From positions 248,001 through 312,000 of the forward strand of contig NZ_CP126161.1 in the NCBI RefSeq assembly GCF_030127105.1: a DNA stretch of 64,000 bases. Reading direction: 5' to 3'. Below the pieces are notes generated by a model. The model was not told where the DNA came from. It made no database searches and saw only the letters and a program-made list of their open reading frames with translations. Below are positions 37,635 through 39,271 of the stretch, in pieces; the stretch's first letter is position 1, and each line of letters opens with the position of its first letter. The DNA comes from Haloarcula pelagica (GTDB taxonomy: Archaea > Halobacteriota > Halobacteria > Halobacteriales > Haloarculaceae). Made by a program: the position numbers and the translations under genes.

Positions 37635-38099
37635 TTACTCGTACAGCCAGGACTCGTCGATCTGGTCCCAGTCGACGAGTTCCTCCTCGTCGAAGAAGAG
37701 GGCGATCTCGCGCTCGTTGGCGCCCTCGTCCTCGTGGTCGGAGCCGTGGATGACGTTCCGACCGAGGTCGAGACCGTAGTCACCACGGATGGTCCCGGGT
37801 GCGGACTCGGCGGGATCGGTCTCGCCCATCATGGCGCGGACCTGCCGCGTGGCGTCCTGGCCCTCCCAGACCATCGCGAAGACCGGACCGGACGTGATGA
37901 AGTCGACCAGCCCGTCGAAGAAGGGCTTGTCGGCGTGCTCGCCGTAGTGTTCCTCGGCGAGGTCCTGGTCGATCTGCATGAACTTCCCGGCGACCATCTT
38001 CAGCCCGCGGTCCTCGAAGCGGGAGACGATGTCCCCGATGAGACCGCGCTGGACGCCGTCGGGCTTGACCATCACGAAGGTTCGCTCGGTGTCGGCCAT
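37635..38099 (-). CDS. ndk: Nucleoside diphosphate kinase
   Basis: 154 residues. It starts with the family motif [16 protein letters not shown]; the phospho-accepting His is H118 in RNVIHGSD. It balances NTP pools by transferring gamma-phosphate between nucleotides. It is the last gene of the ribosomal cluster rpl7ae-rps28e-rpl24e-ndk. Its start overlaps the end of rpl24e. Length is typical. Confidence 0.95.
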
Positions 38100-38455
38100 C
38101 AGGCTTCAGCCTCCTCGGCTTCCTCGTCGTTGTCCTCGTCGTCCGTCGTCTCGGACTCCTCGGCCGCTTCCTCGGCGGCTTCGAGGTCCGGTGCGGCGCT
38201 CGGTTCCTCGTCTTCGGCCTCGTCCTCGGCGGCCGCAGACTCCGCCGCAGCCTCGGCGGCGGCCGTCTCGGCGGCGTCGGCCTCGCGGCCGGCCTCGGTC
38301 CAGCCGAGGTTGCGGGCCTCCCGGCCCAGGTCGGCGTTGTTCTCACACTTCGAGGAACAGAAGTGGATCGTCGAGCCGTCGTTGCGGACGAACATCGTGC
38401 CCGTCCCGGGCTCGATGTCGGCACCGCAGTAGTCACATTCTCGTGTTCGGGGCAT
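38099..38455 (-). CDS. rpl24e: Ribosomal protein L24e with long acidic tail
   Basis: 118 residues. The first 56 are the L24e core: [17 protein letters not shown] and [10 protein letters not shown], the treble-clef zinc Cys set on the large subunit. After residue about 60 a 60-residue Ala/Glu-rich tail follows, much longer than the core protein needs. Such tails are found in halophiles. Cotranscribed with rps28e and ndk. Confidence 0.92.
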
Positions 38456-38458
38456 CGG

Positions 38459-38686
38459 TTACTGACCTCCGATCGCGTCGGCCTCGCGGGCGGTCTCACG
38501 GAGCTGGAGCACGTCGCCCTCGCGGACCGGGCCCAGCACGTTCCGGGTGATGATACGCCCCTGGTTCTCGCCCTCGCGGATGCGGCACTTGACCTGCATG
38601 GCCTCGCCGTGCATCCCCGTCTTGCCGACGATCTCGATGACCTCGGCGGGCGTGGAACCGCTGCCTTCGGATTCCTCAGCACTCAT
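38459..38686 (-). CDS. rps28e: Ribosomal protein S28e
   Basis: 75 residues. The S28e signature [24 protein letters not shown] and [21 protein letters not shown] is complete. It lies in the 30S small subunit near the mRNA exit and E site. Typical length about 70-75. It follows rpl7ae within the operon with an 11-base gap. Confidence 0.95.
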
Positions 38687-38697
38687 CCGTCGTCACC

Positions 38698-39060
38698 TCA
38701 CCGAAGCTCCTCGACCTTGTCGGCGATGTCCTCGACATCGGCCTCGGCCTCGCCCGCGTCGACGATGGCGGCGGCGGCCGACCCGACTTCGAGCCCCGCG
38801 GCGTGACCGAGGTCGTCCTGCTGCTCGACGAAGATGAACGAGACCCCTTTCTCGTCGGCGAGTTCGGGGATGTGCATGACGATCTCCTCGGGCTGAACGT
38901 CCTCGGCGATCAGGACGAGTTCGGCCGAGCCGCGCTCGACGGCCTTGGTCGTCTCGTTGGTTCCTTTCTTGACTGTGCCCGTGTCTCGTGCGACTTCCAG
39001 CGCTTCGAGGGCGTCGTCCTCGAGGTCGGCCGGAACGTCGAAATCTACGTATACTGGCAT
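38698..39060 (-). CDS. rpl7ae: Ribosomal protein L7Ae
   Basis: 120 residues. The L7Ae family features are [45 protein letters not shown], and [16 protein letters not shown]. Besides the ribosome it binds kink-turns in box C/D RNPs and RNase P. A GGAGGTG Shine-Dalgarno (39077-39071) stands before the start, unusual in a genome with many leaderless genes. The leader contains box C/D-like motifs able to pair as a k-turn, which suggests autogenous control. Confidence 0.93.
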
Positions 39061-39083
39061 TGGTATGTTGCACCTCCTGCGCG

Positions 39084-39175
39084 CGGGCTCAGGCTCCCCC
39101 GCCGTTCGCGGGCGTTCCGCGGCGCACCCCGACAGTACGCGGTTTCCTGAGAAGGCTGGGAGCATCATCAACCCG
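39084..39175 (-). promoter_or_regulatory. Kink-turn-like box C/D element in the rpl7ae leader
   Basis: Reading the - strand, CGGGT (39175-39171) can pair with GCCCG (39088-39084), and GCTCCC (39163-39158) with GGGAGC (39098-39093). Between the stems lie TGATGAT on one side, including a TGATGA box C core, and CTGA (box D) on the other, an internal loop with a three-base asymmetry. Standard k-turn register is off by one base, so the fit is imperfect. The element ends only six bases before the AGGAGGTG ribosome-binding site (39078-39071), so L7Ae binding could block translation. Confidence 0.45.
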
Positions 39176-39271
39176 GCACAGGCTGTATCCCATTCTGTGC
39201 TACCACCCCTAAAAGCGCTTTCGAAGCCGAAACGACGTGCCAGGCCGCCACACGGTCGCTGTCCGGTGGTC

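What the first reader, a model, noticed from the sequence alone, without database searches (positions are those of the whole stretch)
39071..39180. Kink-turn-like box C/D element in the L7Ae mRNA leader, abutting the ribosome-binding site
The - strand leader of rpl7ae has two perfect stems (CGGGT/GCCCG and GCTCCC/GGGAGC) flanking a box C core TGATGA and a box D CTGA, with a three-base asymmetric internal loop, six bases before an AGGAGGTG Shine-Dalgarno. L7Ae itself is a k-turn binder, and autogenous control by L7Ae has been described in other Archaea. The exact k-turn register is off by one base, so the fold needs testing. If real, it is a translational feedback switch in a halophile.
Basis: partly seen in the sequence, partly recalled or inferred. 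Interest (0 to 1): 0.7.

Follow-up and report, generated by a model that had tools for sequence, protein, structure and literature searches.

The report
L7Ae-leader kink-turn of salt-loving archaea
The start of the messenger RNA for ribosomal protein L7Ae in salt-loving archaea folds into a long hairpin carrying the kinked RNA shape that L7Ae binds, conserved across nearly the whole group, so the protein very probably turns down its own production; this is a distinct version of a control loop already described in other archaea.

Summary
In 81 leaders, 16 of 21 pairs show compensatory change: 94 double-change cells against 16.6 in shuffles, and 94.1% of cells paired against 35-53% in slid controls. 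A covariance model built without the window's family still finds the window (68.4 bits, E 1e-23), as the only convincing hit in the genome. The element occurs in 155 of 157 good Halobacteriales genomes and, wherever positions were compared, lies directly upstream of rpl7ae. The k-turn register is settled: the sheared GA is the second GA of TGATGA; the bulge is usually UGAU, in some lineages a canonical 3-nt NRU; box D 'CTGA' is not conserved, only its [G/A]A. L7Ae autoregulation by a leader k-turn is published (Daume 2017; Huang 2019), and the Haloferax b-strand was noted in a supplement, but the 50-bp construct tested probably omitted it. New here: the expanded, pan-haloarchaeal architecture, which mostly abuts the SD, and an unexplained GGA loop motif (81/81). 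L7Ae binding and feedback are inferred.

The parts
39210..39214 (-). TATA-like TTTTA with BRE-like CGAAA just upstream (39219-39223); predicted promoter of rpl7ae
   Evidence: Sequence; TATA-to-element spacing fixed at 27-28 nt across parsed leaders
39185..39187 (-). Predicted transcription start; also the start of the conserved 5' UACA
   Evidence: Inferred from TATA spacing; A of UAC invariant, U and C at least 90%; no TSS data available here
39176..39182 (-). P1 stem, 5' strand CCUGUGC
   Evidence: Covariation, columns 9-15
39171..39175 (-). C-helix, b-strand CGGGU (-1b = U)
   Evidence: Covariation; -1b:-1n is U.G 72, U-A 5, C-G 2
39167..39170 (-). k-turn bulge UGAU (L3 = U)
   Evidence: U before GA 81/81; 3-nt bulges CAU/UGU/CGU/GGU in other lineages
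39165..39166 (-). G1b-A2b, sheared GA of the b-strand
   Evidence: GA 81/81
39158..39163 (-). NC-helix, 5' strand GCUCCC
   Evidence: Covariation, columns 28-33
39154..39156 (-). Upper helix GCC, pairs with GGC 39103-39101
   Evidence: Columns 35-37
39145..39147 (-). Conserved GGA loop motif (window: CAGGA), function unknown
   Evidence: Present in 81/81 leaders; no convincing covarying partner
39104..39144 (-). Variable-length apical domain (two hairpins here; b-strand GA lies 63-172 nt from the start codon across leaders)
39093..39098 (-). NC-helix, 3' strand GGGAGC
   Evidence: Covariation
39089..39092 (-). Box-D-like CUGA: extra C39092, 3n U39091, G2n39090, A1n39089
   Evidence: A1n 81/81; 2n G 73, A 8
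39084..39088 (-). C-helix, n-strand GCCCG (C39083 bulged)
   Evidence: Covariation
39076..39082 (-). P1 stem, 3' strand GCGCAGG, overlapping the first 3 nt of the SD
   Evidence: Covariation; overlap count
39071..39078 (-). Shine-Dalgarno AGGAGGUG
   Evidence: position relative to P1
38698..39060 (-). rpl7ae (eL8/L7Ae), 120 aa
   Evidence: TIGR03677 179.4 bits, cut-off 134.6; closest PDB chain 1s72_F, 50S ribosomal protein L7Ae
37635..38686 (-). Downstream genes S28e, L24e, nucleoside-diphosphate kinase, probable operon
   Evidence: and close spacing

Best explanation
The leader is a cis-acting autoregulatory RNA. Its 5' end and the nucleotides just before the SD form a lower helix (P1 plus C-helix, about 12 bp with one bulged nucleotide) that meets an NC-helix at a standard-type k-turn (RU-GA / GA). 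Excess free L7Ae binds the k-turn, locks the kinked hairpin and holds a rigid RNA-protein block against the 5' edge of the SD, lowering translation of rpl7ae and perhaps of the downstream S28e, L24e and ndk genes. Shown here: the element, its secondary structure, the k-turn consensus, its near-universality in haloarchaea and its position behind a conserved promoter. Inferred: L7Ae binding, repression and the steric or partial SD-masking step.
For: Covariation in P1, C-helix and NC-helix: 16 of 21 pairs changed on both sides, 94 double-change cells against 16.6 +/- 3.3 shuffled, 94.1% of cells paired against 35-53% in slid versions; the same in 50 leaders without the Haloarculaceae. k-turn core: U-G-A 81/81 on the b-strand and [G/A]A 81/81 on the n-strand; the -1b:-1n pair switches U.G / U-A / C-G. 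The rare 2n = A variant (8/81) matches Kt-23, which L7Ae binds in a crystal (PMC3985660). One convincing hit in the own genome with either model, and 155/157 good Halobacteriales genomes hit, at the rpl7ae start wherever coordinates were compared. Families f3 and f13 keep the fold with largely different sequence. Families f9/f11 and other Halobacteriota carry a compact k-turn directly at the SD. L7Ae autoregulation through a leader k-turn is demonstrated in S. acidocaldarius, with structure and probing in A. fulgidus. The window L7Ae is near-identical to 1s72_F and reads N-E-T-T-K-A-V-E-R where Huang 2019 names N33, E34, K37 and R41.
Against: No binding, reporter or TSS data for this organism were available. 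The stems are predicted to be stable without protein (window MFE -61.3 kcal/mol; mean P1/C-helix pair probability 0.93), unlike A. fulgidus, where the RNA is unstructured until L7Ae binds, so a simple fold-on-binding switch is less obvious. The SD overlaps P1 by only 0-3 nt, and by none in 27 of 81 leaders. Most leaders have a 4-nt rather than a 3-nt bulge.
Confidence: 0.85

Rival explanations
1. The k-turn is bound by L7Ae, but the main effect is on mRNA stability or processing rather than on initiation.
For: A structured, protein-capped 5' end close to the predicted TSS would suit 5'-end protection; P1 begins about 5 nt from the predicted start. The SD is often not inside the helix.
Against: The helix ends within -3 to +4 nt of the SD start in all 81 leaders, a placement that stability control would not require; published L7Ae cases are reported as translational.
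Confidence: 0.2
2. The hairpin acts as a protein-independent ion, salt or temperature sensor that gates the SD, and L7Ae is incidental.
For: The stems are predicted to be stable without protein; haloarchaeal cytoplasm is molar in KCl (general knowledge).
Against: The invariant k-turn core and its placement at the L7Ae gene are unexplained; few leaders have the sequences that Huang 2019 links to ion-induced folding (3n = G in none, 3b = C in 12/81, -1b:-1n = C:G in 2/81).
Confidence: 0.08
3. The region encodes a separate box C/D guide RNA overlapping the leader.
For: Contains UGAUGA and CUGA in this lineage.
Against: Only one k-turn; a base-paired apical helix where a guide would be; CUGA replaced by GCGA in most leaders; no Rfam match here at gathering score; fixed promoter and SD spacing.
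Confidence: 0.02
4. Chance complementarity in a GC-rich leader.
For: 68% GC; MFE z-score only -1.8.
Against: Covariation, order-wide conservation and a single convincing hit in the genome.
Confidence: 0.005

Closest known systems
L7Ae mRNA leader k-turn of Sulfolobus acidocaldarius and other archaea (Daume et al. 2017, PMC5539422)
   Same: k-turn in the 5' UTR of l7ae next to the SD; same protein; same proposed feedback. The paper included a 50-bp Haloferax volcanii leader and notes in a legend that a Kt-b strand lies further upstream in its alignment.
   Different: Here the b-strand GA lies at least 63 nt (median 104) from the start codon in every parsed leader, so a 50-bp construct would not contain it if H. 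volcanii is like its relatives. The paper reports high leader conservation only in Sulfolobales; the haloarchaeal leaders are strongly conserved.
Archaeoglobus fulgidus l7ae leader k-turn (Huang et al. 2019, PMC6298567)
   Same: GAU-type bulge followed by tandem G:A pairs; sequence mostly of the kind not expected to fold with ions alone.
   Different: In A. fulgidus the SD is in the C-helix and the RNA is unstructured without protein. Here a roughly 12-bp lower helix is predicted to be stable and mostly abuts the SD; one extra n-strand nucleotide, usually a 4-nt bulge, and a variable apical domain with GGA.
Kt-23 of Thelohania solenopsae (PMC3985660)
   Same: Adenine at 2n, as in 8 of 81 haloarchaeal leaders; that k-turn is bound by L7Ae.
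   Different: Ribosomal RNA, not an mRNA leader.
Archaeal box C/D sRNA k-turn
   Same: RUGA b-strand and NGA n-strand core, L7Ae ligand.
   Different: No guide, no second k-turn, box D not conserved, cis position in an mRNA leader.

Membership tests
Archaeal L7Ae-leader autoregulatory k-turn (Daume 2017; Huang 2019) | Located in the 5' UTR of the l7ae gene | tested here: met
   Element spans 39187-39062, immediately before the rpl7ae ATG at 39060; promoter upstream; hit coordinates adjoin rpl7ae in the related genomes compared
Archaeal L7Ae-leader autoregulatory k-turn (Daume 2017; Huang 2019) | Two helices flanking a bulge and tandem sheared G.A pairs | tested here: met
   Covarying C- and NC-helices; GA / [G/A]A in 81/81
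Archaeal L7Ae-leader autoregulatory k-turn (Daume 2017; Huang 2019) | Adjacent to or occluding the Shine-Dalgarno | tested here: met
   Helix end lies -3 to +4 nt from the SD start in all 81; true overlap 0-3 nt
Archaeal L7Ae-leader autoregulatory k-turn (Daume 2017; Huang 2019) | RNA bound and folded by L7Ae | not testable with these tools
   Needs EMSA, FRET or probing
Archaeal L7Ae-leader autoregulatory k-turn (Daume 2017; Huang 2019) | Translation reduced by L7Ae | not testable with these tools
   Needs a reporter; in published work only a 50-bp H. volcanii leader was tested, in E. coli with S. acidocaldarius L7Ae
Standard k-turn | Exactly three-nucleotide bulge | tested here: inconclusive
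   Window and most leaders have 4 nt (UGAU) if the U.G pair forms, or GAU plus one extra bulged U; several lineages have exactly 3
Box C/D guide sRNA | Box C RUGAUGA and box D CUGA with guide and C'/D' | tested here: not met
   CUGA not conserved and a paired apical helix instead of a guide; no Rfam hit at this site

The most novel reading that the evidence does not exclude
The haloarchaeal leader is a two-input regulator. Besides the L7Ae k-turn, the GGA loop motif (81/81 leaders, kept even where the surrounding helices are wholly changed) is a second binding site, for the anti-SD end of 16S rRNA (a loop-presented docking or decoy SD) or for another protein, so that ribosome access and L7Ae excess are integrated on a pre-folded hairpin instead of an unfold/fold switch.
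Probability: 0.25. Interest if true: 0.65.

Novelty: new variant of a known kind. Interest (0 to 1): 0.47.

Why it matters
It supplies covariation-grade evidence for L7Ae-leader k-turns across nearly a whole archaeal order, defines the haloarchaeal architecture precisely enough to test in Haloferax, and suggests that the only published haloarchaeal reporter construct lacked half of the real k-turn. Because the helix is predicted to be pre-formed and mostly abuts the SD rather than burying it, it challenges the unfolded-until-bound switch model drawn from A. fulgidus. The GGA loop motif is a conserved feature without explanation.

Tried and rejected
First GA of TGATGA as the sheared pair (canonical RUGAUGA/CUGA register): rejected, because the G-C pair it needs is lost in the majority GCGA leaders and 3-nt-bulge lineages place the kink at the second GA. 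Alternative hairpin UCCUAG/CUAGGA competing with the NC-helix (a switch): rejected as a conserved feature, because GGA persists where UCCU is absent (e.g. L134, L139, L142, L144). Covarying partner for GGA: none convincing. Extension of P1 by 5'-UAC with SD GUG: seen in the window MFE, but 16 of 81 leaders lack GUG/GUA there. Other copies of the element in the genome: none convincing. Weak model hits in other Halobacteriota are not at L7Ae leaders; the G272 hit overlaps its L7Ae gene on the opposite strand. Whole-window Rfam scan: only two tRNAs.

Full report
Check of the observation. The minus-strand leader of rpl7ae reads, from the predicted start, UACAGCCUGUGCCGGGUUGAUGAUGCUCCCAGCC...GGCGGGGGAGCCUGAGCCCGCGCGCAGGAGGUGCAACAUACCA-AUG. 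The lower stem is longer than reported: CCUGUGC 39182-39176 pairs with GCGCAGG 39082-39076, so the helix reaches the first three bases of AGGAGGUG. The gene is L7Ae/eL8 (TIGR03677; closest PDB chain 1s72_F, 50S ribosomal protein L7Ae), followed by S28e, L24e and ndk.

Comparative test. L7Ae loci were gathered from named haloarchaeal genomes, the window's genus and its order. Leaders were parsed from all but a few, and 81 distinct ones were aligned. With the refined structure, 94.1% of cells are standard pairs, 16 of 21 pairs have changes on both sides, and there are 94 double-change cells against a shuffled mean of 16.6; sliding the 3' partners by 1-3 columns drops pairing to 35-53%. Leaving out the Haloarculaceae gives the same picture. 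RNAalifold, given no structure, recovers the same P1 and C-helix and a close variant of the NC-helix. A model built without the window's family finds the window at 68.4 bits, E 1.3e-23, and nothing else convincing in the 4.46-Mb genome. In the order, 155 of 157 good genomes have the element; where the listed coordinates were compared it lies directly upstream of rpl7ae.

The k-turn register. In the alignment U24-G25-A26 (the second GA of TGATGA) is invariant in 81/81, and the n-strand dinucleotide is GA (73) or AA (8), with A invariant. Lineages with shorter bulges (CAU, UGU, CGU, GGU) show the same GA preceded by exactly three bulged nucleotides. The -1b:-1n pair varies as U.G, U-A and C-G. 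So the core is RU-GA / [G/A]A; the window's 'off-by-one' is an extra nucleotide in the bulge plus one extra on the n-strand. The 2n = A variant corresponds to Kt-23, which L7Ae binds (PMC3985660). Families f3 and f13 keep the fold with largely different sequences, which is independent support because they are not among the sequences of the model (f3 has one representative, L169, in the alignment; G050 and G058 are not in it).

Evolution and relatives. Two Halobacteriales families (f9, f11) and other Halobacteriota have a compact k-turn ending directly at the SD, for example CGU-GAU-GA-AGCGC-GCUA-GCGCU-GA-ACG-AGG in G055. The haloarchaeal form therefore looks like an expansion of that element: a lower helix of about 12 bp and a variable apical domain. 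The direction of change is inferred, not tested with a tree.

Transcription start. The TATA box to element spacing is 27-28 nt in nearly all parsed leaders (the 39-40 class in that output comes from the pattern catching TTTGA twelve bases upstream of the true TTTTA). A start at about 39187-39185 is predicted, so the element would be in the mRNA.

Mechanism. Published work shows L7Ae repressing its own translation through a leader k-turn in Sulfolobus, and for A. fulgidus a protein-induced fold that occludes the SD. Here the predicted lower helix is stable on its own (mean pair probability 0.93), and the SD is at its edge, with 0-3 nt overlap. I therefore favour a pre-formed hairpin that L7Ae locks and caps, blocking 30S access by sterics and partial SD masking. 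This step is inference.

What is known already. Daume et al. tested a 50-bp H. volcanii leader and noted that another Kt-b strand lies further upstream in their alignment. In every haloarchaeal leader parsed here the b-strand GA lies at least 63 nt from the start codon, so that construct very probably lacked the true b-strand. I did not have the H. volcanii sequence itself, only Haloferacaceae relatives (Halobellus, Haloquadratum, Haloprofundus and others).

Unexplained. A GGA motif in the apical loop region is present in 81/81 leaders and persists where the helices have changed completely; no covarying partner was found.

Noticed in passing
window 39147-39145 and the same position in 81 leaders: GGA (YAGGA / AGGGA / CGGA) loop motif conserved in all expanded leaders without a pairing partner; function unknown.
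   Followed up: partly
window 39187-39184: 5'-terminal UACA is almost invariant (A 81/81); it may be an initiator element or part of the RNA. Pairing with SD GUG is possible but absent in 16 of 81.
   Followed up: partly
window 38099-38455: L24e has a long acidic, Ala/Glu-rich C-terminal extension; only residues 5-53 match the family model.
   Followed up: no
L227 (G042), L251 (G055), L255 (G067), L257 (G040): Two Halobacteriales families (f9, f11) carry a compact L7Ae-leader k-turn directly at the SD instead of the expanded form.
   Followed up: partly
G011:C1:22862-23221 and 3286679-3287038: One genome of the genus lists two L7Ae matches with equal scores, perhaps a duplication or an assembly overlap.
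   Followed up: no
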